A stretch of DNA of 64,000 nt from Chitinophagaceae bacterium (GTDB taxonomy: Bacteria; Bacteroidota; Bacteroidia; Chitinophagales; Chitinophagaceae). The stretch covers positions 948,163-1,012,162 of the forward strand of contig JANINS010000004.1 of assembly GCA_024508725.1 (NCBI GenBank), in the 5' to 3' direction. The notes beneath the pieces are model-generated. The model did no database searches. It saw only the letters and a program-made list of their open reading frames with translations, and was not told where the DNA came from. Below are positions 50 through 18,629 of the stretch, one piece after another. Each line of letters begins with the position of its first letter. Position 1 is the first letter of the stretch. The position numbers and the translations under genes are program-made.

Positions 50-214
50 CAATAAAAAATTATAACAGCAACATGCGAATGAATAGAATACATATTGAAT
101 CAGCAAAAAGGCTCAGCCAGTTTGGCAATACCTTTTGCAGGGCATGTAAAGCTGTGTTTTGATACAACAAAAACTAACAAGCTACAAAGCCCTGCAGAAA
201 TTGCGGGGCTTTTT
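50..214 (+). ncRNA. candidate small RNA upstream of the Ro60 gene
   Basis: A transcript starting just after the promoter at 12-44 would end at the strong terminator at 186-214, giving an RNA of about 165 nt. The only open frame (95-286) reads through the terminator and resembles no known protein. I cannot assign an RNA family. It could instead be an untranslated remnant or the end of a unit that starts outside the window. Confidence 0.3.
186..214 (+). terminator. Rho-independent terminator
   Basis: An 11-bp perfect stem (186-196 with 202-212), a GAAAT loop and a T run. Confidence 0.8.
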
Positions 215-505: not shown

Positions 506-2020
506 ATGAGATTCAATTTTAAGCGTAAAGCAAAAGAAGTAACCAACTATGAGGGAGCAAAGGCATTCGTTCTAACTCCTGAACTGGAACTATATACCGC
601 AGTTGTAACTGCTGCATTGACTGATAATTTTTACGAGAAAGCTGATGACAGATTGCATCGTATTCGTGAACTCATCAGTAAGAACAATGCACAGTTCGTT
701 GCAAAGCTGGCAGTGTATGCAAGAGAGCAAATGAATCTTCGTTCTGTATCTCTTGTGCTGGCTGTTGAACTGGCAAAGCAACACAATGGTGACAACCTTG
801 TAAGTGCTTTGACTGCAAGAGTAGTACAACGTGCAGATGAGATCACGGAAGTGTTGGCTTTCTATGCACAAAATAACGATCGTAAGCAGGTGAAGCAGTT
901 GAACAAGTTGAGCAAGCAATTGCAAAAAGGTTTGGCTGAGGCTTTCAACCGTTTTGATGAATACCAGTTTGCTAAATACAACCGTGATGCACAGGTAAAG
1001 TTGAAAGATGCTTTGTTCCTGGTGCACCCAAAAGCAAAGGATGAAGCTCAACAAGCTTTGTTCAATAAGATCGTAAAGGATGAATTGCAGGTTCCATACA
1101 CCTGGGAAGTTGAATTGAGTGTGATGGGTCAGCAAAAGTATGATACAGTTGAACTGAAGAAAGAAGCTGTGAAGGCAAAGTGGGAAGAGCTCATCTTCAG
1201 CAACAAACTTGGTTATATGGCCATGCTGCGTAACCTGCGTAACATATTGGAAGCAGATGTTAGCAACGAAGCACTTGATAAGGTATGTGCATATATCGCT
1301 AATGCAAATGCAGTAGCAAAGAGCAGGCAATTGCCTTTCCGTTTTCTGAGTGCGTACCGTGAGCTAAAGAATGTAGATAATGGTCGTGTAAGTAAAGTGT
1401 TGGATGCATTGGAAGATGCAGTACTGCATACCGCAGCCAATATTACAGGTTACGATGCAAACACTAAAGTGGTTATCGCTGCCGACGTAAGTGGTAGCAT
1501 GCAAACTGCAGTGAGTGCAAGAAGTAAAGTGCAGCGTTTTGATATTGGTTTGATGCTGGCAATGTTGCTGCAAAGCAAGTGTGAGCATGTGATCACTGGT
1601 ATGTTCGGTGATACATGGAAGATCATTAACGTGTCAAAGAAGAATATTCTTAGCAATGTGATGGAGTTCCATCGTCGTGAAGGTGAAGTTGGTTATAGTA
1701 CCAACGGTTACCTGGTTATCAAAGACCTTATTCAAAAGAATAAAGTGGTTGATAAGATCATGATGTTCACTGATTGCCAGTTGTGGAACAGTAACGATGC
1801 AAATACTCAGTACGCTGACATTTGGAATCGTTACAAGAAGATCGCACCAAATGCAAAGATGTATTTGTTCGATCTGGCTGGTTACGGTAATACTCCGCTG
1901 AATGTGATAAGAGATGATGTGTACCTGGTAGCTGGCTGGAGCGATAAGATCTTCGATGTGTTGGCAGCGATAGAGAATGGAAGTGATGCTTTGAAGATGA
2001 TCAACGCAATAGAACTGTAG
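506..2020 (+). CDS. rsr: Ro60/Rsr RNA-binding protein (TROVE + vWA)
   Basis: Bacterial Ro60 orthologue, a ring-shaped protein that binds Y RNAs and ends of misfolded or damaged RNA. Residues 1 to about 310 are the helical HEAT-like TROVE domain. About 320-504 is a von Willebrand A domain with an intact MIDAS: DVSGS at 327-331, T399 in GYSTNG and D423 in MFTD. At 504 aa it is slightly shorter than animal Ro60 (about 540). The start is fixed by AAAAGGAGGT 6-15 nt upstream, an unusually strong Shine-Dalgarno for this phylum and unlike its neighbours, which may signal horizontal transfer or high expression. A hairpin (2047-2078) and then the Y/tRNA-like array follow directly, and rtcB lies 3.3 kb downstream. 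In enterobacteria rsr, Y RNAs and rtcBA form a sigma54-controlled repair operon; no sigma54 site was seen here. Confidence 0.93.
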   Translation: MRFNFKRKAKEVTNYEGAKAFVLTPELELYTAVVTAALTDNFYEKADDRLHRIRELISKNNAQFVAKLAVYAREQMNLRSVSLVLAVELAKQHNGDNLVSALTARVVQRADEITEVLAFYAQNNDRKQVKQLNKLSKQLQKGLAEAFNRFDEYQFAKYNRDAQVKLKDALFLVHPKAKDEAQQALFNKIVKDELQVPYTWEVELSVMGQQKYDTVELKKEAVKAKWEELIFSNKLGYMAMLRNLRNILEADVSNEALDKVCAYIANANAVAKSRQLPFRFLSAYRELKNVDNGRVSKVLDALEDAVLHTAANITGYDANTKVVIAADVSGSMQTAVSARSKVQRFDIGLMLAMLLQSKCEHVITGMFGDTWKIINVSKKNILSNVMEFHRREGEVGYSTNGYLVIKDLIQKNKVVDKIMMFTDCQLWNSNDANTQYADIWNRYKKIAPNAKMYLFDLAGYGNTPLNVIRDDVYLVAGWSDKIFDVLAAIENGSDALKMINAIEL

Positions 2021-2046: not shown

Positions 2047-2078
2047 AAAAGTAGTCCCTGGAGATTGGGGCTACTTTT
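2047..2078 (+). terminator. hairpin between rsr and the RNA array
   Basis: A 12-bp stem (2047-2058 with 2067-2078, one G-T pair) with loop TGGAGATT. Its T residues are part of the stem, so termination would be partial. It could set the ratio of mRNA to array RNA or act as a 3'-end stabiliser. Confidence 0.5.
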
Positions 2079-2090
2079 CCTAAAATGAAT

Positions 2091-2159
2091 TAAGGATGTC
2101 GTAGAGATGAGATACTTCGAACCCAGAATGTAAAGGCTCATTTCGTTTGTTTCTCCTTA
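2091..2159 (+). ncRNA. Y-RNA-like element 1 (short module)
   Basis: Outer stem TAAGGA (2091-2096) with TCCTTA (2154-2159). Fixed 5' motif TGTCGTAG at 2097-2104. Inner stem ATGAG (2107-2111) with CTCAT (2137-2141). Then ATACTTCGA at 2112-2120, a 16-nt variable loop and a 3' motif TTCGTTTGTTTC (2142-2153). The layout resembles a Ro60-binding Y stem: two helices around a conserved asymmetric internal loop, with a CUUG/UUUG-type 3' strand. There is no tRNA-like insert. Stem sequences differ between copies but pairing is kept. Confidence 0.75.
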
Positions 2160-2165
2160 TAAATA

Positions 2166-2263
2166 GAAAGGTGTCGTTAGCAAGAGATACTTCGTGGTAA
2201 TTATGGTTCGAATCCATCCACTCTTAAAAGAGTGAGAGAACTCTTGTGACTTGTTATCCTTTC
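2166..2263 (+). ncRNA. Y-RNA-like element 2 with minimal permuted tRNA mimic
   Basis: Outer stem GAAAGG (2166-2171) with CCTTTC (2258-2263). Motif TGTCGTTAG at 2172-2180, inner stem CAAGAG (2181-2186) with CTCTTG (2241-2246), ATACTTCGT at 2187-2195, 3' motif TGACTTGTTAT (2247-2257). The insert has a T arm (ATGG, TTCGAAT loop, CCAT; 2203-2217) followed directly by a 7-bp acceptor-like hairpin, 2219-2225 with 2228-2234. The acceptor 3' strand therefore precedes the 5' strand, as in a circularly permuted tRNA that has lost its D arm. Confidence 0.72.
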
Positions 2264-2268
2264 AATTT

Positions 2269-2344
2269 TAACCTGTAGCCCAACGGAAGAGGCAACAGTC
2301 TTAGACACTGTTTTGTATCGGTTCGAATCCGATCAGGTTAACCA
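2269..2344 (+). tRNA. tRNA-like gene, anticodon TAG (class I fold)
   Basis: A 76-nt canonical cloverleaf with encoded CCA (2342-2344). Acceptor 2269-2275 with 2334-2340, discriminator A2341. D stem 3 bp with GG at 2285-2286. Anticodon arm ACAGT/ACTGT with loop 2300-2306 and TAG at 2302-2304. Variable loop 5 nt. T arm 2317-2333. TAG is a Leu anticodon, but bacterial tRNA-Leu has a long variable arm, absent here, so the charging identity is doubtful. Confidence 0.8.
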
Positions 2345-2463
2345 ATTGAATGATGCCGTAGAACAGTATTACTTCGTAGTTCATTTGGCTGGAACATTCC
2401 ATTCGTGGAAAAGCAACCTGTTCGAATCAGGTCTAGTGACTGTTTGCTTGTTGCTCATTCAAT
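2345..2463 (+). ncRNA. Y-RNA-like element 3 with unpermuted tRNA-like domain (YrlA-like)
   Basis: Outer stem of 9 bp (2345-2353 with 2455-2463). Motif TGCCGTAG at 2354-2361, inner stem AACAGT (2362-2367) with ACTGTT (2439-2444), ATTACTTCG at 2368-2376, 3' motif TGCTTGTTGC (2445-2454). The insert is in normal tRNA order: a D arm GTTC/GAAC (2379-2395, GG in the loop), a TTCCA/TGGAA hairpin with a TTCG tetraloop in place of the anticodon arm (2397-2410), and a T arm ACCTG/CAGGT with TTCGAAT (2416-2432). This matches the known tRNA mimicry of bacterial YrlA Y RNAs. Confidence 0.78.
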
Positions 2464-2468
2464 GTTAT

Positions 2469-2541
2469 ATAGTAGCATTCCGATTGGCCGGATACTCCAC
2501 CTGGACTGGAGAGGCTGCAGGTTCGAATCCTGTCTACTATA
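2469..2541 (+). tRNA. tRNA-like gene, anticodon TGG with C33
   Basis: 73 nt. Acceptor ATAGTAG/CTACTAT (2469-2475 with 2534-2540), discriminator A2541, then CAA rather than CCA. Anticodon stem CTCCA/TGGAG, loop CCTGGAC (2500-2506), anticodon TGG (Pro). The universally conserved U33 is C, and position 8 is C rather than T. T arm GCAGG/CCTGT with TTCGAAT. These changes make normal decoding doubtful. Confidence 0.7.
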
Positions 2542-2545
2542 CAAA

Positions 2546-2613
2546 TAAGGATGTCGTAGAAATGAGATACTTCGACCAGGAAAAATCAAGACTCATTCGC
2601 TTATCACTCCTTA
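2546..2613 (+). ncRNA. Y-RNA-like element 4 (short module)
   Basis: Outer stem TAAGGA (2546-2551) with TCCTTA (2608-2613). TGTCGTAG at 2552-2559, inner stem ATGAG (2562-2566) with CTCAT (2592-2596), ATACTTCGA at 2567-2575, 3' motif TCGCTTATCAC (2597-2607). It is the closest relative of element 1, with the same stems but a different variable loop, so one probably arose from the other by duplication. Confidence 0.75.
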
Positions 2614-2620
2614 CTTAAGC

Positions 2621-2656
2621 GTGTCGTAAATCGTAGCGAAGCAAGATTCACGACAC
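2621..2656 (+). repeat. hairpin containing the Y 5' motif in fully paired form
   Basis: GTGTCGT (2621-2627) pairs with ACGACAC (2650-2656), continued by AATC (2629-2632) with GATT (2645-2648). The left arm repeats the GTGTCGTA motif of the Y elements, but TACTTCG and the 3' motif are absent and the motif is locked in a duplex. It may be a degenerate Y copy, a processing site or a terminator-like structure. Confidence 0.6.
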
Positions 2657-2676
2657 ACCAACAAAACAATAAAAAT

Positions 2677-2742
2677 AGCGTGTCGTAAAACAGTGATACT
2701 TCGAACTGTCACTTCAAAAGCCACTATTTGCTTGTTACCGCT
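2677..2742 (+). ncRNA. Y-RNA-like element 5 (short module)
   Basis: Outer stem AGCG (2677-2680) with CGCT (2739-2742). TGTCGTAA at 2681-2688, inner stem AGTG (2692-2695) with CACT (2722-2725), ATACTTCGA at 2696-2704, 3' motif TTTGCTTGTTAC (2727-2738). A second CACT (2710-2713) could pair competitively with the inner strand, so two folds are possible. No tRNA-like insert. Confidence 0.72.
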
Positions 2743-2749
2743 TTCGCAT

Positions 2750-2822
2750 TGGTTCGTAGCTCAACTGGCAGAGTACTCGGCTTTTAACCGAGGGGCTGTG
2801 AGTTCAAATCTCACCGGACCAA
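2750..2822 (+). tRNA. tRNA-Lys-like gene, anticodon TTT
   Basis: 73 nt. Acceptor TGGTTCG/CGGACCA (2750-2756 with 2815-2821, one T-G pair), discriminator A2822 followed by CAA. D arm GCTC/GAGT with GG. Anticodon arm CTCGG/CCGAG, loop CTTTTAA, TTT at 2783-2785. T arm GTGAG/CTCAC with TTCAAAT. It is well formed, but the first pair is T-A where bacterial tRNA-Lys normally has G-C, and CCA is not encoded. Confidence 0.82.
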
Positions 2823-2828
2823 CAACGA

Positions 2829-2899
2829 TGTTGAGTAGTGTAATGGTAACATACCAGTCTTTGACACTGGTGTTGATGGTTCAAGTCCATCCTCAACAA
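2829..2899 (+). tRNA. tRNA-Gln-like gene, anticodon TTG
   Basis: 71 nt. Acceptor TGTTGAG/CTCAACA (2829-2835 with 2892-2898); T1-A72 is usual for tRNA-Gln. Discriminator A2899, then CAA. D stem GTGT/ACAT, anticodon arm CCAGT/ACTGG with loop CTTTGAC (TTG at 2861-2863), T arm GATGG/CCATC with TTCAAGT. A complete cloverleaf. Confidence 0.82.
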
Positions 2900-2904
2900 C
2901 AAAT

Positions 2905-2976
2905 GGTGGTATTAGCTTATTGGTAAAGCGTCCGTCTGTGAAACGGAAGAACAGGGTTCAATTCCCGATACTCACC
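2905..2976 (+). tRNA. tRNA-His-like gene, anticodon GTG, bulged acceptor
   Basis: Eight acceptor pairs, including the extra G-1:C73 pair typical of tRNA-His, form only if T2972 is bulged out (2905-2912 with 2969-2976). D arm GCTT/AAGC with GG. Anticodon arm TCCGT/ACGGA, GTG at 2938-2940. The T stem has only 3 good pairs (GGG/CCC, 2954-2956 with 2964-2966). A degenerate but recognisable tRNA-His fold with no encoded CCA. Confidence 0.72.
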
Positions 2977-2980
2977 CGAT

Positions 2981-3124
2981 ACAGGTGTCGTAGGTAAAAG
3001 ATACTTCGACTCATAATCGGCAGGTCGCTGGTTCGAATCCAGCCGGGTCCACTTACTAATAAATGCATTGGACCTGTAGCTCAGATGGTAGAGCAGCTAG
3101 TGCTTTTATCGCCCATCACCCTGT
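2981..3124 (+). ncRNA. Y-RNA-like element 6 with embedded, circularly permuted tRNA-Met
   Basis: Outer stem ACAGG (2981-2985) with CCTGT (3120-3124). TGTCGTAG at 2986-2993, inner stem TAAAAG (2995-3000) with CTTTTA (3103-3108), ATACTTCGA at 3001-3009, 3' motif TCGCCCATCAC (3109-3119). The insert is an elongator tRNA-Met-like sequence in permuted order. First comes the 3' half: anticodon loop CTCATAA 3010-3016, variable loop 3022-3026, T arm GCTGG/CCAGC 3027-3043, acceptor 3' strand 3044-3050, A73 at 3051. Then a 18-nt linker (3052-3069), then the 5' half: acceptor 5' strand 3070-3076, T8A9, D arm GCTC/GAGC 3079-3094 and GCTAG. All 7 acceptor pairs and 5 T-stem pairs form. The Y stem occupies the place of the anticodon stem junction. 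Confidence 0.8.
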
Positions 3125-3130
3125 ACACTT

Positions 3131-3203
3131 TGGCTTATAGTTTAATGGATCAAAACATTGCACTACGAATGCAGAAATAGAAGTTCGACTCTTCTTAAGC
3201 CAA
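3131..3203 (+). tRNA. tRNA-Arg-like gene, anticodon ACG
   Basis: 73 nt. Acceptor TGGCTTA/TAAGCCA (3131-3137 with 3196-3202), discriminator A3203, then CAA. D stem GTTT/AAAC. Anticodon arm TTGCA/TGCAG with loop CTACGAA, ACG at 3165-3167 (the A34 that TadA converts to inosine in bacterial tRNA-Arg). T arm AGAAG/CTTCT with TTCGACT. Complete cloverleaf, without CCA. Confidence 0.8.
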
Positions 3204-3205
3204 CA

Positions 3206-3337
3206 ACAGGTGTCGTAGAAAAGAGATACTTCGTGGGTCACAAGTTCGAATCTTGTTTCCTGTATATCAGGAATAGCTCAGTTGGTTAGAGCAACAGCCT
3301 TGCAAGCTTATGTTCTTTTTTCGACTTATTACCCTGT
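3206..3337 (+). ncRNA. Y-RNA-like element 7 with embedded, circularly permuted tRNA (TGC)
   Basis: Outer stem ACAGG (3206-3210) with CCTGT (3333-3337). TGTCGTAG at 3211-3218, inner stem AAAAGAG (3219-3225) with TTCTTTT (3313-3319), ATACTTCGT at 3226-3234, 3' motif TTCGACTTATTAC (3320-3332). Insert order: T arm ACAAG/CTTGT (3240-3256), acceptor 3' strand TTCCTG (3257-3262), 5-nt loop, acceptor 5' strand CAGGAA (3268-3273), T8A9, D arm GCTC/GAGC (3276-3292), then a complete anticodon loop CTTGCAA (3299-3305; TGC). The breakpoint is 3' of the anticodon loop, unlike element 6 where it is 5' of it. Confidence 0.78.
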
Positions 3338-3340
3338 AAC

Positions 3341-3412
3341 GGATGAATAGCTCAATGGCAGAGCTGCGGCTTGTTAAGCCGAGGGTTGAAAGTTCGAATC
3401 TTTCTTCATCCG
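3341..3412 (+). tRNA. tRNA-Asn-like gene, anticodon GTT
   Basis: 72 nt. Acceptor GGATGAA/TTCATCC (3341-3347 with 3405-3411), discriminator G3412 as in bacterial tRNA-Asn, then CAA. T8A9, D arm GCTC/GAGC, anticodon loop TTGTTAA (GTT at 3373-3375) on a stem with one G-A mismatch, T arm GAAAG/CTTTC with TTCGAAT. One of the most regular members of the array. Confidence 0.85.
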
Positions 3413-3418
3413 CAAATT

Positions 3419-3492
3419 GTCGTGCTGGCAGATGTGGCTGTATGCACTCGACTGCAAATCGAGAGAAAGAAGTTCGAGTCTTCTGCACGACT
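3419..3492 (+). tRNA. tRNA-Cys-like gene, anticodon GCA
   Basis: 74 nt. Acceptor GTCGTGC/GCACGAC (3419-3425 with 3485-3491), discriminator T3492 as required for tRNA-Cys, then CAA. D stem reduced to GCA/TGC with a large loop, anticodon arm CTCGA/TCGAG with loop CTGCAAA, T arm AGAAG/CTTCT with TTCGAGT. Identity elements fit tRNA-Cys. Confidence 0.84.
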
Positions 3493-3497
3493 CAAAT

Positions 3498-3575
3498 GGT
3501 GCTTTGGCAGAGAGGATTTATATGCACCGGCTTGAAACACCGGACAGCCAGGTTCGATTCCTGGAGGCACCACCA
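3498..3575 (+). tRNA. tRNA-like gene with 9-nt anticodon loop (TGA/GAA ambiguous)
   Basis: 78 nt including encoded CCA (3573-3575). Acceptor GGTGCTT/AGGCACC, discriminator A3572. D stem GCA/TGC with a 13-nt loop. The anticodon helix is only CCGG/CCGG (3527-3530 with 3540-3543), leaving a 9-nt loop, CTTGAAACA. Counting from U33 gives TGA (Ser) but there is no class II variable arm; GAA (Phe) is the alternative. T arm CCAGG/CCTGG is perfect. A normal decoding role is doubtful. Confidence 0.7.
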
Positions 3576-3615
3576 TATAATTTTTAATAAATGAAAATGA
3601 CAATAAATCAAAACC

Positions 3616-4101
3616 ATGGAACAGCAACAACAATGGAGAAAGCTGGATGGTACACGGATCAAAAGATCCATCAGAGATGAGATAAGAGATATTCTGATGT
3701 ACGAAAGAAATGCAGAACATGATATTTCTGTCTGCATAGGTACCGACAGCCAGGTAAAGGGTGGCATTACAGAGTTTGCTACCGTTATCGTATTTATTAG
3801 AAAAGGTAAAGGAGGTTTTATGTACATCAGTAATGAAGTATGCAAACGCAGAATGTCGGTAAAACAAAGAATGCTAGAAGAAGTACAGAGAAGTATTGAT
3901 GTTGCATACAGCCTGTGTGATCTTTTCATTGCTTTTGATGTTGCAATGGAAATTCATGCAGATATTAACACCAATCCCAACTTCAAAAGTAATGAGGCTT
4001 TTAAAGATTCCATGGGATATATTACAGGTATGGGATTCGCTTTCAAAGCAAAACCTCATGCTTTTGCAAGTTCAAGCTGTGCTAACAAAATAGTTCAATA
4101 G
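3616..4101 (+). CDS. DUF458/YkuK-family RNase H-fold protein
   Basis: 161 aa, complete for this family. The family is predicted to have an RNase H-like fold; the acidic IGTDSQ strand at 41-46 and the later IHADIN and SNEAF...GYITGMGF segments fit its conserved core. The likely role is nucleic-acid binding or cleavage, but catalysis has not been shown for the family as far as I know. It starts 40 nt after the last tRNA-like gene and precedes the AAA ATPase by 36 nt, so it is probably co-transcribed with the RNA-repair genes. The ATG at 3616 is chosen because upstream ATGs at 3591-3597 are out of frame. No Shine-Dalgarno. Confidence 0.75.
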   Translation: MEQQQQWRKLDGTRIKRSIRDEIRDILMYERNAEHDISVCIGTDSQVKGGITEFATVIVFIRKGKGGFMYISNEVCKRRMSVKQRMLEEVQRSIDVAYSLCDLFIAFDVAMEIHADINTNPNFKSNEAFKDSMGYITGMGFAFKAKPHAFASSSCANKIVQ

Positions 4102-4137
4102 AAACATTAAAATAAACTAATACCAAAAAATAATTAT

Positions 4138-5283
4138 ATGCAAATCATTTTAGCAATAGCCATATCACTCTGGATGTTGATATGGCTGGTAGAAAGATCA
4201 GTGAACTGGCTTAACAGCCTGATCATTCGAATGAGATTGAAGCCAACCATTTTCGATCATCAGTACATTGAAGCGAAGCAGCTTTACGTGAACAGGTTCA
4301 GGCAAGTGCCTTGCATTTGCTGGATCGATGACGTTGACTGTGGAAAAGCTCTCGAATTTGTGCAATTACATTATAGCAAAGAGATCGTAGATGTGTTTCA
4401 ATGCAACGATTTTAATGCGGAGAAACAAGTGTTGGAGTTCAGAAAAACCATCGTAGCTATGGCTGATCAAAGGATCATTGAGTTTGCTTACGACTATGTA
4501 ACGATCTATCACAATAAGCAACAGTTTGGTTTTGCACAAGAACTTTCTTTTAAACTTGTTCAATTCAGAAAAGAACAAAAGAAAGAAAAGTACGAGATCA
4601 ACATCATTACAAACGGTTACAACGGACTCGAGTTAAAAGATCTTGAGATCAAGCCAACGCAATTAGATGTGGCTCTTTATTACAATGATGATTTTAAACC
4701 GGTTGACGAGTTGATCAGAACAAGGTTGATGAAAGAGAACGATAAAGGTATCATCTTGCTGCATGGACTTCCAGGAACTGGTAAAACAACTTACCTGAGA
4801 CACCTGATTGGAACATTGAAAAAGAAAGTGCTTTTCGTGTCTCCATCTGTAGCAGGTAACCTTGTTGATCCAAACTTCATTGAACTATTGATCGACAATC
4901 CAAATTCTGTATTAGTGATCGAAGATGCAGAGAATGTGATCATGGATAGAAAAGTGGATAGCAATTCTTCTGTGTCTAACCTGCTCAATATTTCTGATGG
5001 ATTATTAAGTGACTGTCTGAATGTTCAGATCATTTGTACATTCAATAATGCTTTGTCAATGGTAGATTCTGCCCTGATGAGGAAAGGACGGCTGATCGCA
5101 AAATATGAATTCGGAAAATTAAGCATAGCCAAGGCACAGGCTTTGAGCGATCACCTGGGTTTTGATCACAAGATCAACCGGCCAATGACACTGGCAGAGA
5201 TCGCTAATCCAAACGAGATCGATCATAAACCAGCAGTGAATGTAATTGGCTTTAGAAGAGAAGAATTAGTAATGGAAAATTAA
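4138..5283 (+). CDS. membrane-anchored BCS1-like AAA ATPase
   Basis: 381 aa. The N-terminal 1 to about 30 is a hydrophobic anchor followed by basic residues. About 35-190 is a domain I do not recognise. The AAA module begins near 195, with Walker A GLPGTGKTT at 210-218, Walker B VLVIEDAE at 258-265, sensor-1 TFNNA near 301 and a GRL arginine-finger-like segment shortly after. The overall plan (N-terminal membrane segment, short middle domain, single AAA) recalls BCS1-type ATPases, which translocate folded substrates; the substrate here is unknown. Location between DUF458 and rtcB suggests it remodels RNA or RNP complexes, which is inference. Confidence 0.72.
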   Translation: MQIILAIAISLWMLIWLVERSVNWLNSLIIRMRLKPTIFDHQYIEAKQLYVNRFRQVPCICWIDDVDCGKALEFVQLHYSKEIVDVFQCNDFNAEKQVLEFRKTIVAMADQRIIEFAYDYVTIYHNKQQFGFAQELSFKLVQFRKEQKKEKYEINIITNGYNGLELKDLEIKPTQLDVALYYNDDFKPVDELIRTRLMKENDKGIILLHGLPGTGKTTYLRHLIGTLKKKVLFVSPSVAGNLVDPNFIELLIDNPNSVLVIEDAENVIMDRKVDSNSSVSNLLNISDGLLSDCLNVQIICTFNNALSMVDSALMRKGRLIAKYEFGKLSIAKAQALSDHLGFDHKINRPMTLAEIANPNEIDHKPAVNVIGFRREELVMEN

Positions 5284-5319
5284 TAGCTGCTCAAAGATTT
5301 AAAGTACAAGAGTGCGACG

Positions 5320-5350
5320 CAACGGAAGTTTCATAGCGTTACTTCCGTTG
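5320..5350 (+). terminator. hairpin between the AAA gene and rtcB
   Basis: A 10-bp perfect stem, CAACGGAAGT (5320-5329) with ACTTCCGTTG (5341-5350), and an 11-nt loop. No T run follows, so it is more likely a processing or stabilising structure than a terminator. It overlaps the dispersed AGTGCGACGCAAC repeat (5311-5323). Confidence 0.45.
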
Positions 5351-5372
5351 GTTTCACAAAAAACAAAACAAA

Positions 5373-6836
5373 ATGGCAAAGAAATTATCAATACGTGGCA
5401 AAGACATCAGGGGAATTGGTTATCCCGAAGGACCTGTAGTGTCTGTAGCCATTAATACAATGGAAAAACATTTCAAGCATGAAACGCTTGCAAGTGCATT
5501 ACACTTATTGAAACAAGTGCTGAATGATCCTGCAACATTTGCAGAAGATGAGATATTAGGAAATATTGCAAAGCTGCTGAGACCAAAAGCTACAGACACT
5601 GCAGAAAGCATTGGTGAAGTATCGTTAAATAAAGAAGGTGTGCATTTCAATGTGTTTGGTCGTGAGCATATCGAAGAAGGCGCCATGCACCAGATGTACC
5701 AGGCCGCCAAACTTCCGATAAGTGTTGCCGGAGCTTTAATGCCGGATGCTCATCATGGTTATGGTTTACCGATTGGTGGAGTGCTGGCAACGGAGAATGC
5801 AATTATTCCGTATGGTGTTGGAGTGGATATTGGTTGCAGAATGTGCCTTTCTATCTTCGACATCGATCCGAAAGATCTTGTTCAACGTGAAGCTTACTTT
5901 ACAAGAGAATTGAACGAAGCAACATTGTTTGGCGGAGGAAAGGAATTCAAAACCACCACCGATCATGAGGTGCTGGACAATGAACTTTTCTATCGTTTGC
6001 CTTTATTAAAAGGTTTACACGGAAGGGCTGCAAAGCAATTGGGATCTTCAGGATCCGGTAATCACTTCGTGGAGTTTGGTACAGTAGAGATCACTGAGAA
6101 AGATGCAGTATTAGGTGTTGAACCTGGAAAATATCTTGGACTGTTATCGCATAGCGGATCAAGAGCTTTAGGTGCAAACATTGCCCAGCACTATACTAAA
6201 CTTGCAAAGGCAAAAAGAAAATTGCCTGGTGAAGCTTCTAATATTGCGTGGTTCTTATTGAACGAAGAAGAAGGTTGGGAGTATTGGTTGAGCATGAACC
6301 TGGCCGGTGATTATGCTTCTGCCTGTCATCATGTGATTCATGCTAAAATTGCTAAGCAGTTAGGAAGGATGCCTATGAAGATGGTAGAGAACCATCACAA
6401 TTTCGCATGGAAAGAAATGCATGATGGAAAAGAAGTGATCGTTCATCGTAAAGGTGCAACACCTGCAGGTAAAGATGTGCTTGGAATTATTCCGGGAAGC
6501 ATGACTGCCCCGGGTTTTATTGTAAAAGGTAAAGGAGAAACGGCTTCTATTAACTCTGCATCGCATGGTGCAGGCAGACAAATGAGCCGTACCCAAGCAT
6601 TGAGCAATATTACCCACAACGCATTGAAGAATGAGCTGGCGAAACATGGTGTAACTTTATTAGGTGGAGGATTAGATGAAGCTCCTTTTGCTTATAAGAA
6701 CATTCATGATGTGATGAATGCACAACAACATTTGGTTGACACTGTTGGGTTATTCTATCCTAAGATCGTTAAGATGGATGGCGGAACACCTAAGCAATGG
6801 AAGAATAAGAAAGGGGAAGATCTTTTAGGAGAGTAA
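5373..6836 (+). CDS. rtcB: RtcB RNA-splicing/repair ligase
   Basis: 487 aa, a full-length RtcB close in size to archaeal enzymes. It joins 2',3'-cyclic phosphate or 3'-phosphate ends to 5'-OH ends using GTP and Mn2+. Visible signatures: GVDIGCRM with the metal-binding cysteine at 155, the SGSGNHFVEFG metal/histidine segment, LSHSGSRALG, VENHHNFAW, and NSASHGAGRQMSRTQA, whose His398 matches the guanylylated histidine. The start is at an A-rich leader without Shine-Dalgarno. It is the last gene of the rsr/array/DUF458/AAA series and the most direct evidence that the locus handles cleaved RNA. No archease or RtcA is present in the window. Confidence 0.96.
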   Translation: MAKKLSIRGKDIRGIGYPEGPVVSVAINTMEKHFKHETLASALHLLKQVLNDPATFAEDEILGNIAKLLRPKATDTAESIGEVSLNKEGVHFNVFGREHIEEGAMHQMYQAAKLPISVAGALMPDAHHGYGLPIGGVLATENAIIPYGVGVDIGCRMCLSIFDIDPKDLVQREAYFTRELNEATLFGGGKEFKTTTDHEVLDNELFYRLPLLKGLHGRAAKQLGSSGSGNHFVEFGTVEITEKDAVLGVEPGKYLGLLSHSGSRALGANIAQHYTKLAKAKRKLPGEASNIAWFLLNEEEGWEYWLSMNLAGDYASACHHVIHAKIAKQLGRMPMKMVENHHNFAWKEMHDGKEVIVHRKGATPAGKDVLGIIPGSMTAPGFIVKGKGETASINSASHGAGRQMSRTQALSNITHNALKNELAKHGVTLLGGGLDEAPFAYKNIHDVMNAQQHLVDTVGLFYPKIVKMDGGTPKQWKNKKGEDLLGE

Positions 6837-9842: not shown

Positions 9843-10400
9843 ATGGAGAATTTCGATCCGAAGAAAGCCAAAGCCATCAGCAAATATTTAAGCTACATCC
9901 TAAGGCATGATCCGGATGATGTAGGGATCATCCTTGATAAGAATGGCTGGACAAATACCCACACGCTTATTCAGCAGGTTAAACTAAGATTCCCGGCACT
10001 GGATAAAACCATTTTGGAATACATCGTTGCAACCAACAACAAACAACGTTTCATTTTTAGTGATGACAAAAGCCTGATCAGGGCAAACCAGGGCCATTCG
10101 ATCGATGTGGAATTAAACCTTCTGGAACAGGAACCACCAACAGTTCTATTTCATGGTACCACTATCGGAAATATTAATTCCATCATGCAGGAAGGATTGA
10201 AAAAGCAAAGCAGGCATCATGTACACCTTAGCGAAAATGTAACCACTGCATTACAGGTAGGCAGCAGGCATGGACGAGTGTCGATTCTTAAAATACATTC
10301 GGGTAAGATGTATGCAGATGGTTATACATTCTATATCTCTGCCAATCATGTTTGGTTAACAGATCATGTACCACTGGCATATATTGAAGATAACTTTTAA
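9843..10400 (+). CDS. kptA: KptA/Tpt1 RNA 2'-phosphotransferase
   Basis: 185 aa, normal family length. It transfers an internal RNA 2'-phosphate to NAD+, releasing ADP-ribose 1'',2''-cyclic phosphate. Visible family features: SKYLSYILRHDPDDVGI at 14-30 with the catalytic Arg-His pair, GWTNTHTLIQ, KQRFIF, LFHGTT with the NAD-binding His, HVHLSENVTTALQVGSRHGR and the C-terminal VWLTDHVPLAYIE. In fungi it erases the 2'-phosphate left by Trl1-type ligation; RtcB leaves no such mark, so the bacterial substrate is open. Its position 3 kb from rtcB and rsr adds a fourth RNA-repair function to this region. Confidence 0.93.
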   Translation: MENFDPKKAKAISKYLSYILRHDPDDVGIILDKNGWTNTHTLIQQVKLRFPALDKTILEYIVATNNKQRFIFSDDKSLIRANQGHSIDVELNLLEQEPPTVLFHGTTIGNINSIMQEGLKKQSRHHVHLSENVTTALQVGSRHGRVSILKIHSGKMYADGYTFYISANHVWLTDHVPLAYIEDNF

Positions 10401-16910: not shown

Positions 16911-18629
16911 TTAAAAGGAGAACACGTTGGGTATTTTCTCTGTACCAAACGAAGATTCTACCGGTGTAGGTGTTAATCCTTTCTTCGATTTAAGCTTGCT
17001 GTATAATTCCTCAAAGCTTATTGTACCGCCTTCTTTTTTTAATACATCCAACAAGGCTGTTGCAAATGGTGAATTGCTACTGATGCTTCCGTTATGATAC
17101 CGGATAAAATCATCTACTTCGGTAATGCCCGATGCCAGTACTTTCTTAAATGCATTCTTCATCTTTTCAGCCTCACCTTTTGGATCTACTTCCCTGCTAA
17201 ACTGCAGTAAAGAATTTACAGAAGTGCCACCAAAGCACACATCGGTTATCAGCACTACTTTATTCAACTGGTCCAGCTTTCTGAAGAGAACGGTATAGTC
17301 AATATAACTGTTCAATTCTGTCATCGCAGGTTTTTGAATGTTGGCTATGTCCTTCGAATCAGCACAAACAATAAAGCCCGCCTTTTGCCTTGCATCATAA
17401 AAACCATGACCGGCGAAGTAAACGATATACTGGTTGTAAGGATTCTGCACTTCATTATCCACCATATCAGATATAGCAGTGAGTATACTGTCTTTTGGTT
17501 TATTGTACAGCGTGGTCACTTCATAACCGAGTGATGAAAATATTTTTGCAGCATCTCTCCCATCGTTCACAGGATTCTGCAATCGCCTCCATGTGTTTGA
17601 AGCGGCATATTCGTTTGTTGCAACGATGAGTACTTTCTTCTTACTGGCAGCAATGTTCTCATCTACCTTAGGCTCTGCAGGTTTAATGGTAAGACCTCGT
17701 TTACCACTGCCAGTGTTATTGTTTAAAGAAGATAGGAGTTTGAGGTATTGCGTTTCCTCAATAATGCTGATGTTGGATCTTATCTTTAATTGGTTCTCGT
17801 ACCAATACTTCCAGAAGTTCTTATAATCAGCTTCATGATGTACTGTATCAAATATCGTTAGAATATTATACCGTGCTGGCAGACTGCTGATCACTTTAAA
17901 CAGGTCTCCTTTGATTTCTCCTGTAGCCGAATCTACGGCTTCGAAGCTATACTTCTCAGGACTGATAACAATCCTGTTCTTTTTAGCAAATGCTACTTCC
18001 GCTATATTATCGCTAAAGAAGTTTCGATAATAATCAGCTGAGATCACTCGACCATCACCGGTATCAAATATAATGAGTTGCCTTTTCGCTGCGATCCTGT
18101 CAGTGAGTTGTTTCAGGTGACGAAGCGTGTACACATTGTTTTCTTTGTTCGCTGTATTGGCTAACTGGTTCAGCATATAAAATCCTTCGGGATTCCCGCT
18201 TTCATCCTGCCGTATGCCCCATCCAATACTGGCATAATAGAAAATAAATATATCCTTATCTGTTACCTGTGTTTGCAGCAAGCTAAACACTTTGAATAAA
18301 GTATCGAGGTGTACGTCTTTCGTATATACATAACTGATAACAGTATCTATATAGCCAACTTCTTTCTTTAGCCTGGTAAAATAACCCGATATACCCTTTG
18401 CATCATTGATACAGGTTGAACAATCATTAAAAACGCTGTTGACGCTGCTACTCTTGTCTTTTCCCTCGTAAGAAAGCCCAATAGAAACCAGGTAAACACT
18501 TGTACCACGTTTCTTTTTGATCTCTACACCTGCATAGGCTGATGAAAAGAAGCAGGTGAGCAACAGTAGTAGCATGCTCATCTTACTATGCCATCTGCTG
18601 TCAATATTTTTGCGTTTCAATTGTTGCAT
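16911..18629 (-). CDS. exported tandem pseudo-caspase/caspase protein (peptidase C14-like)
   Basis: 572 aa with a signal sequence (hydrophobic core about 17-30). Residues about 330-500 form an active-looking caspase fold: KKVLIVATNEY, LQNPVNDGRDAAKIFSSLGY, catalytic His408 in YFAGHG and Cys465 in ITDVCFGG. Residues about 43-205 look like a second, degenerate copy: VYLVSIGLSYEG, CINDAKGISGYF, then FYYASIGWG (130-138) where FxGHG is expected and IIFDTGDG (187-194) where DxCxGG is expected, so both catalytic residues are missing. Such a pair suggests regulation or scaffolding by the inactive copy. Substrate unknown. Confidence 0.8.
   Translation of the reverse strand: MQQLKRKNIDSRWHSKMSMLLLLLTCFFSSAYAGVEIKKKRGTSVYLVSIGLSYEGKDKSSSVNSVFNDCSTCINDAKGISGYFTRLKKEVGYIDTVISYVYTKDVHLDTLFKVFSLLQTQVTDKDIFIFYYASIGWGIRQDESGNPEGFYMLNQLANTANKENNVYTLRHLKQLTDRIAAKRQLIIFDTGDGRVISADYYRNFFSDNIAEVAFAKKNRIVISPEKYSFEAVDSATGEIKGDLFKVISSLPARYNILTIFDTVHHEADYKNFWKYWYENQLKIRSNISIIEETQYLKLLSSLNNNTGSGKRGLTIKPAEPKVDENIAASKKKVLIVATNEYAASNTWRRLQNPVNDGRDAAKIFSSLGYEVTTLYNKPKDSILTAISDMVDNEVQNPYNQYIVYFAGHGFYDARQKAGFIVCADSKDIANIQKPAMTELNSYIDYTVLFRKLDQLNKVVLITDVCFGGTSVNSLLQFSREVDPKGEAEKMKNAFKKVLASGITEVDDFIRYHNGSISSNSPFATALLDVLKKEGGTISFEELYSKLKSKKGLTPTPVESSFGTEKIPNVFSF

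What the first reader, a model, noticed from the sequence alone, without database searches (positions are those of the whole stretch)
2091..3337. Seven copies of a Y-RNA element with covarying stems
Seen: TGTCGTAG (or a 1-2 base variant) and TACTTCG recur seven times, each flanked by an outer helix and an inner helix. Outer helices are TAAGGA/TCCTTA twice, GAAAGG/CCTTTC, a 9-bp helix, AGCG/CGCT and ACAGG/CCTGT twice. Inner helices are ATGAG/CTCAT twice, CAAGAG/CTCTTG, AACAGT/ACTGTT, AGTG/CACT, TAAAAG/CTTTTA and AAAAGAG/TTCTTTT. Every strand change is compensated, and a 3' motif near GCTTGTTAC always follows the inner stem. The fixed motifs sit where the Ro60-contacting internal loop lies in animal Y RNAs (CGAAG opposite CUUG).
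Basis: partly seen in the sequence, partly recalled or inferred. Interest (0 to 1): 0.92.

Follow-up and report, generated by a model that had tools for sequence, protein, structure and literature searches.

The report
Y RNAs carrying opened-up tRNAs
Next to a bacterial Ro60 gene lies a family of Y RNAs, interleaved with spare tRNA genes, whose ends keep one fixed stem while their middles carry tRNA copies cut open at different places; a conserved subset still shows an anticodon loop and a tRNA-type 3' end, suggesting that these RNAs stand in for tRNAs in an RNA-repair island.

Summary
Seven copies share TG[T/C]CGTA-N9-TACTTCG, an outer and an inner helix and a 3' motif, between a Ro60/TROVE gene and an RNA-repair cluster (RtcB; KptA further on). 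In 93 Ro60 loci of Bacteroidota the core recurs. A pair not used to find the copies covaries cleanly (T-A 117, C-G 137), and outer helices pair at 95% against 60% shuffled. They are bacterial Y RNAs; copies 6 and 7 match Rfam YrlA full length. Copies 6 and 7 hold whole tRNAs (CAT, TGC) in circularly permuted order, with the Y stem inserted in the anticodon stem. Inserts written twice give ARAGORN tRNAs in 85 of 254 cases, single or shuffled inserts in none. Relatives show further attachments: in the D loop, or at the acceptor with the anticodon arm capped by a tetraloop. A conserved subset keeps an anticodon loop (U33 in 82 of 82 orthologues although position 37 is mostly a pyrimidine) plus A73-C74 and an open linker (79 of 83). 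Nine divergent, redundant tRNA genes lie between the copies. Best reading: Ro60-bound tRNA surrogates in a tRNA-damage island. The mechanism is inferred. New variant of a known kind; the key Y RNA papers could not be read.

The parts
506..2020 (+). Ro60 orthologue (Rsr): TROVE domain plus Ro60-type vWA domain
   Evidence: Pfam PF05731 E 1.7e-29, PF25045 E 2.3e-8
2091..2159 (+). Y element 1: outer TAAGGA/TCCTTA, inner ATGAG/CTCAT; insert of 18 nt, no tRNA part
2166..2263 (+). Y element 2: outer GAAAGG/CCTTTC, inner CAAGAG/CTCTTG; insert folds as a T-arm hairpin (loop TTCGAAT) plus an acceptor-like hairpin CACTCTT/AAGAGTG
2269..2344 (+). tRNA gene, Leu(TAG), 76 nt, without the long variable arm usual for Leu
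   Evidence: ARAGORN; Rfam tRNA 57 bits
2345..2463 (+). Y element 3: nine-pair outer helix, inner AACAGT/ACTGTT; tRNA-like insert in natural order (D arm, arm capped by TTCG, T arm), Y stem in place of the acceptor
2469..2542 (+). tRNA gene, Pro(TGG)
2546..2613 (+). Y element 4: outer TAAGGA/TCCTTA, inner ATGAG/CTCAT, insert of 18 nt
2677..2742 (+). Y element 5: outer AGCG/CGCT, inner AGTG/CACT, insert of 19 nt
2750..2823 (+). tRNA gene, Lys(TTT)
2829..2900 (+). tRNA gene, Gln(TTG)
2905..2977 (+). tRNA gene, His(GTG)
2980..3125 (+). Y element 6: outer ACAGG/CCTGT, inner TAAAAG/CTTTTA; whole circularly permuted tRNA(CAT)
   Evidence: ARAGORN on the doubled insert: Met(cat); Rfam YrlA 2994-3112, E 1.3e-6
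3007..3019 (+). anticodon hairpin of element 6: CGA / loop CTCATAA / TCG, anticodon CAT at 3012-3014; its 5' strand is the end of the Y motif TACTTCG
   Evidence: sequence
3051..3069 (+). linker between tRNA 3' half and 5' half in element 6, beginning A-C (tRNA positions 73-74)
3131..3204 (+). tRNA gene, Arg(ACG)
3206..3337 (+). Y element 7: outer ACAGG/CCTGT, inner AAAAGAG/TTCTTTT; permuted tRNA(TGC), acceptor closed by a short loop
   Evidence: ARAGORN on the doubled insert: Ala(tgc); Rfam YrlA 3219-3322, E 3.5e-7
3296..3308 (+). anticodon hairpin of element 7: AGC / loop CTTGCAA / GCT, anticodon TGC at 3301-3303; Y stem inserted in the 3' strand of the anticodon stem
   Evidence: sequence
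3341..3413 (+). tRNA gene, Asn(GTT)
3419..3493 (+). tRNA gene, Cys(GCA)
3498..3575 (+). tRNA gene, Phe(GAA)
3616..4101 (+). RNase H-like protein
   Evidence: Pfam PF04308 E 8.5e-35
4138..5283 (+). AAA ATPase
   Evidence: Pfam PF00004 E 2.5e-12
5373..6836 (+). RNA ligase RtcB
   Evidence: Pfam PF01139 E 4.2e-80
9843..10400 (+). RNA 2'-phosphotransferase KptA/Tpt1; 3 kb further on, link to the island uncertain
   Evidence: Pfam PF01885 E 1.9e-47

Best explanation
These are bacterial Y RNAs of the YrlA kind, encoded beside their Ro60 partner in an RNA-repair island. Each has a constant module (outer helix, internal loop with TGYCGTA and the T[A/G]C motif, inner helix, TACTTCG), presumably the Ro60 site, and an exchangeable module. 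In 4 of 7 copies here, and in most long copies in relatives, that module is tRNA-derived. The tRNA is opened at one of several places and grafted onto the Y stem: in the anticodon stem (5' or 3' strand), in the D loop, or at the acceptor. Proposed action: the Y stem is held by Ro60 while the tRNA part is bound by enzymes that handle tRNA. Copies with a closed acceptor and no anticodon act as elbow mimics that tether or gate, as proposed for YrlA. Copies that keep an anticodon loop and an open, tRNA-type 3' end act as tRNA surrogates for anticodon-cutting nucleases or repair enzymes, next to spare tRNAs and RtcB. Shown by sequence: location, covarying stems, permuted tRNA order, retained anticodon loops and 3' ends. 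Inferred: Ro60 binding, expression, processing and the surrogate role.
For: Core and covariation in 93 relative loci. Clustered cores only in TROVE genomes, 11 of 28 against 0 of 367 (Fisher 2.7e-14). RF02553 YrlA over the full model for copies 6 and 7; YrlA matches, full or partial, also in all five relative loci searched. Doubled inserts yield tRNAs 85 of 254, single 0, shuffled 0. Anticodon hairpin with U33 built on the Y motif: 31 elements against 1.7 expected from shuffles, about 20 different triplets. Retained hairpin goes with a long open linker: 20 of 28 against 6 of 63, Fisher 5e-9. In 83 orthologues (mostly one genus, plus Flavobacterium) U33 is invariant in the 82 with a loop, the other loop positions vary, and the linker starts AC in 79 although 76 linkers differ; all 36 of the genome's other tRNA genes scored encode C74. 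Island content RtcB, spare tRNAs, KptA. PMC7790460 reports that the homologous Salmonella operon is induced by cleaved tRNAs and suggests that YrlA may inhibit the nuclease.
Against: No expression, binding or processing data. In the orthologue series position 37 is mostly a pyrimidine, four loops have six bases and one copy lost its loop, so an anticodon is not strictly needed. Most permuted copies have a closed acceptor and no anticodon. Salmonella YrlA was not cut by the nuclease studied. RtcB was found in the fetched flanks of only 27 of 93 loci and three or more tRNAs in 20 of 93, so island content is not constant; some flanks are short. Three of the seven copies here have no tRNA part. 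The orthologue series comes from closely related genomes, so its counts are not independent events.
Confidence: 0.55

Rival explanations
1. Plain YrlA-type Y RNAs: the tRNA-like part only needs the D/T elbow, to tether PNPase or gate Ro60. Anticodon loops and 3' ends are remnants of repeated capture of tRNA genes from the neighbouring array, with no function of their own.
For: RF02553 match; most permuted copies closed and without anticodon; anticodon arm replaced by tetraloops in natural-order copies (GAAA, TTCG); RYPER model as reviewed in PMC8394870.
Against: Anticodon hairpin and open 3' end are kept together (Fisher 5e-9). U33 and A73-C74 stay nearly fixed in orthologues while neighbouring loop and linker positions vary, which neutral remnants would not do; shared ancestry weakens this.
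Confidence: 0.33
2. Permuted tRNA genes: after transcription the Y stem is cut out, RtcB joins the halves, and tRNA end-processing frees functional tRNAs, as for algal and archaeal permuted tRNAs.
For: Whole tRNAs with anticodon, acceptor, A73-C74 and linker; RtcB and KptA encoded nearby.
Against: Pyrimidine at position 37 in 66 of 78 seven-base loops, six-base or missing loops, and a changing anticodon in one orthologue series; the anticodons found here (CAT, TGC) are already in the genome; most copies have closed acceptors; no splicing endonuclease found.
Confidence: 0.07
3. The Y stems are only processing signals that cut a tRNA operon transcript between its tRNAs.
For: Elements alternate with tRNA genes here.
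Against: Most relative loci have Y elements and no tRNA genes (26 of 93 have any tRNA); the internal-loop motifs are conserved in sequence; YrlA match.
Confidence: 0.03
4. Pseudogene debris: tRNA fragments brought together by recombination around a repeated hairpin.
For: Copies vary much; elements 1, 4 and 5 have no tRNA part.
Against: Compensatory changes across the phylum and a fixed 23-base core; 120 of 173 genomes of one genus keep one orthologous copy.
Confidence: 0.02

Closest known systems
YrlA-type bacterial Y RNA (Rfam RF02553; Chen et al. 2014; Wang et al. 2018, PDB 6CU1)
   Same: Encoded beside Ro60; tRNA-like domain in the order T arm, acceptor hairpin, D arm; TACTTC aligns with the model's AUGCUU; full-length model match for copies 6 and 7.
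   Different: The Rfam model has a long inner helix where part of this family keeps an anticodon hairpin; the acceptor is open with A73-C74 in a subset; D-loop and acceptor attachments are not matched by the YrlA model in the loci tested; many copies per locus; spare tRNA genes between copies in some loci.
Salmonella rsr-yrlBA-rtcBA RNA-repair operon (PMC7790460)
   Same: Ro60, Y RNAs and RtcB together.
   Different: No spare tRNA array described in the passages read; two Y RNAs; rtcA and rtcR present there, while here an RNase H-like protein, an AAA ATPase and KptA are nearby.
Circularly permuted tRNA genes of algae and archaea (PMC3978253)
   Same: 3' half of the tRNA precedes the 5' half in the gene, with a linker between the ends.
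   Different: Joined there through a bulge-helix-bulge motif and spliced; here the halves are held on a Y RNA stem and there is no sign of splicing.
Two-piece tmRNA from permuted genes
   Same: A tRNA acceptor domain made from two halves of a permuted gene whose linker may be removed.
   Different: No message part; the domain hangs on a Ro60-type stem.
Stress-induced or phage tRNA arrays (e.g. Anabaena trn operon, PMC10272220)
   Same: A block of redundant tRNA genes connected with RtcB.
   Different: Here it sits in a Ro60/Y RNA island; the Anabaena paper does not mention Ro60 or Y RNA.

Membership tests
bacterial Y RNA | encoded next to a Ro60 (TROVE) gene | tested here: met
bacterial Y RNA | terminal stem with conserved internal loop, supported by covariation | tested here: met
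bacterial Y RNA | binds Ro60/Rsr | not testable with these tools
   needs a binding experiment
bacterial Y RNA | at least one Y RNA of the locus has a tRNA-like domain | tested here: met
YrlA (RF02553) | match to the covariance model at the curated cut-off of 69 bits | tested here: not met
   41 and 39 bits, full model length, E about 1e-6; best relative 54 bits. Filed as YrlA-like by architecture, not as an RF02553 member by cut-off.
YrlA (RF02553) | T arm, acceptor hairpin, D arm in this order | tested here: met
   copies 6 and 7; tightly closed acceptor only in copy 7
animal Y RNA (RF00019) | match to the covariance model | tested here: not met
   no match at E up to 10 in 2050-3600
functional permuted tRNA gene | decoding-competent anticodon loop (U33, purine 37) | tested here: inconclusive
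   met in copies 6 and 7 and several relatives (copy 7 read from sequence); position 37 mostly a pyrimidine in the orthologue series
functional permuted tRNA gene | joined tRNA product in vivo | not testable with these tools
   needs RNA sequencing

The most novel reading that the evidence does not exclude
The complete copies are matured by tRNA end-processing into two-piece, CCA-ended tRNA-Y hybrids that present a U-turn anticodon loop on a Ro60-bound stem. They serve as tRNA surrogates (decoys or sensors) against anticodon nucleases, with changing anticodon sequences, while sister copies present only the tRNA elbow from other attachment points.
Probability: 0.18. Interest if true: 0.82.

Novelty: new variant of a known kind. 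Interest (0 to 1): 0.62.

Why it matters
Bacterial Y RNAs are known as tRNA mimics, but what the mimicry is for is open. Here one phylum offers hundreds of natural variants in which the Ro60 stem is constant while the tRNA is grafted at the anticodon stem, the D loop or the acceptor. Comparing what every version keeps (T loop and elbow) with what only some keep (U33, A73-C74) shows which tRNA features matter and suggests direct tests for anticodon nucleases, tRNA end-processing and RtcB. It also shows tRNA-derived sequence in permuted order beside real tRNA genes in bacteria, which tRNA finders miss (0 of 254 single inserts called).

Tried and rejected
Folding energies of single copies: weak, not used as evidence. 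A first loose test of the anticodon hairpin (G-T pairs, four registers) gave 45 against 32 expected and was dropped for a strict test decided after seeing that result (Watson-Crick only, U33): 31 against 1.7. The automatic 'D' class mixed in anticodon-type copies; D-loop copies were recounted by their leading GG..AGAGC motif (10 unique). A crossing helix in one class of inserts was not clearly better than swapped tails in the loose test and is only noted. Chen 2014, Wang 2018, Sim and Wolin 2018, Sim et al. 2020 and Burroughs and Aravind 2016 are not held, so the claim that D-loop and acceptor attachments are undescribed is untested.
Full report
1. What is there. Between a Ro60/TROVE gene (506-2020) and genes for an RNase H-like protein, an AAA ATPase and RtcB (3616-6836; KptA/Tpt1 at 9843-10400) lie seven copies of an element and nine tRNA genes. 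Each copy has an outer helix, TG[T/C]CGTA, an inner helix, TACTTCG, an insert, and on the way back the inner strand, a motif ending T[A/G]C, and the outer strand. The core is found seven times in the genome, all here. Flanking genes sampled look chromosomal.

2. Is it more than chance? In the window, strands pair in 34 of 35 positions in both helices, and only the trivial swaps among identical copies do as well. In relatives, the core recurs with a spacing of 23 bases, rarely 22, 24 or 25, in nearly all of the 80 loci found in the genome collection and in 8 of 13 loci from the family search, some of which hold little flank or face the other way. The base at position 3 of TGYCGT, not used to find partners, covaries with its predicted partner: T-A 117, C-G 137, T-G 13, other 11; outer helices are 95% canonical against 60% for shuffled strands. 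The inner-helix figure in that call is biased, because the register was chosen by pairing. In 395 genomes of the phylum, two or more clustered exact cores occur in 11 of 28 genomes with TROVE and in none of 367 without; single matches elsewhere look like background.

3. What the elements are. Rfam YrlA (RF02553) matches copies 6 and 7 over the full model, E about 1e-6, below the curated cut-off; the animal Y_RNA family does not match. YrlA is the known tRNA-mimicking bacterial Y RNA (reviewed in PMC8394870).

4. The inserts. In copy 6 the insert reads 3' half of a tRNA, linker, 5' half: CGA-CTCATAA-TCG anticodon hairpin, variable region, T arm, acceptor 3' strand, A73-C74, linker, acceptor 5' strand, D arm, then two bases that pair with positions 42-43. 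The Y stem is thus inserted between positions 28 and 29 of an otherwise complete tRNA(CAT). Copy 7 is a tRNA(TGC) with the Y stem in the 3' strand of the anticodon stem and the acceptor closed by a short loop. Copy 3 is in natural order, with the Y stem in place of the acceptor and a TTCG cap on the anticodon arm. Copy 2 has a T-arm hairpin and an acceptor-like hairpin. Copies 1, 4 and 5 have 18-19 nt inserts. Across relatives, inserts of 40-130 nt written twice give ARAGORN tRNAs in 85 of 254 cases, single inserts in 0, shuffled doubled inserts in 0. Ten unique copies start inside a D loop (GG..AGAGC), run through an anticodon arm, T arm and acceptor hairpin and end with the other D strand; the anticodon loop is degenerate in those read by eye. 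In the five relative loci searched, Rfam listed no YrlA match on the D-loop copies.

5. Two kinds of permuted copy. With strict Watson-Crick pairing and U33, 31 elements have a three-pair, seven-base anticodon hairpin whose 5' strand is the end of TACTTCG; 1.7 are expected. That hairpin goes with a long linker between acceptor strands (20 of 28) rather than a tight loop (6 of 63), Fisher 5e-9. I then took one orthologous copy from 83 sequences of Flavobacterium and a second genus, probably Chryseobacterium since the query came from it (120 of 173 genomes of that genus have it). U33 is invariant in all 82 with a loop, position 37 is C or T in 66 of 78, the triplet varies (CAT, TTT, GTT, TGG, TAT, GTC and others), the linker begins AC in 79 of 83 although 76 linkers are distinct, and acceptor and T stems show paired changes. 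All 36 tRNA genes scored outside the island in the window's genome encode C74. This pattern looks like upkeep of a tRNA-shaped surface and a tRNA-type end, not of decoding. Shared descent within the series means that the counts are not independent.

6. The spare tRNAs. All nine anticodons are already among the 36 tRNA genes scored elsewhere in the genome; the bodies are no closer to the same-anticodon tRNA (54-69% identity) than to unrelated ones (mean between isotypes 62%), and Leu(TAG) lacks the long variable arm. Three or more tRNA genes occur in 20 of 93 relative loci.

7. How it probably works. Shown: gene arrangement, covarying stems, permuted order, retained features. Inferred: Ro60 holds the constant module; the tRNA part is recognised by tRNA enzymes. 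The nearest published experiment is the Salmonella operon, induced by cleaved tRNAs, whose authors suggest YrlA as a possible competitive inhibitor of the nuclease, though YrlA itself was not cut (PMC7790460). I favour tRNA surrogates in a damage response for the complete copies and elbow mimics for the closed ones. The main rival is plain YrlA function with remnants. Functional permuted tRNAs are unlikely, because of pyrimidine 37, missing or short loops, and redundancy.

8. Novelty. Y RNAs with a tRNA-like domain are known. Retained anticodon loops with open 3' ends, D-loop and acceptor attachments, and alternation with spare tRNA genes were not found in the papers I could read, but the central YrlA papers were not held, so this is a new variant, with that caveat.

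Noticed in passing
L037 3489, L057 7979, L090 8025, L109 7591 and others (inserts): A class of Y elements has GGGG...CCCC closing a long arm and a T-arm (CCGG-TTCGACT-CCGG); the first bases of the insert could pair with bases just before CCCC, a possible pseudoknot (GTC/GAC, GCT/AGC, GGC/GCC, GTT/AAC by eye). The loose test was not clearly better than swapped tails.
   Followed up: partly
L478, L484, L491: In three genomes of the genus used the T loop of the orthologous permuted copy carries an insertion of about 50 bases that begins AATGCA and ends in AACAA.
   Followed up: partly
window 2620-2660: Degenerate-looking stretch AGCGTGTCGTAAATCG...GATTCACGACACACC: a Y-like start within an inverted repeat, without TACTTCG.
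   Followed up: no
window 186-212 and 2056-2070: Terminator-like hairpins upstream of the Ro60 gene and between it and the first Y element; possible control of read-through.
   Followed up: no
window 16911-18629: Protein with a caspase-type peptidase domain (PF00656, E 7e-24), about 10 kb from the island.
   Followed up: no
window 9843-10400: KptA/Tpt1 RNA 2'-phosphotransferase near the RtcB island; none of the 93 relative loci gave a KptA match in the flanks fetched.
   Followed up: partly
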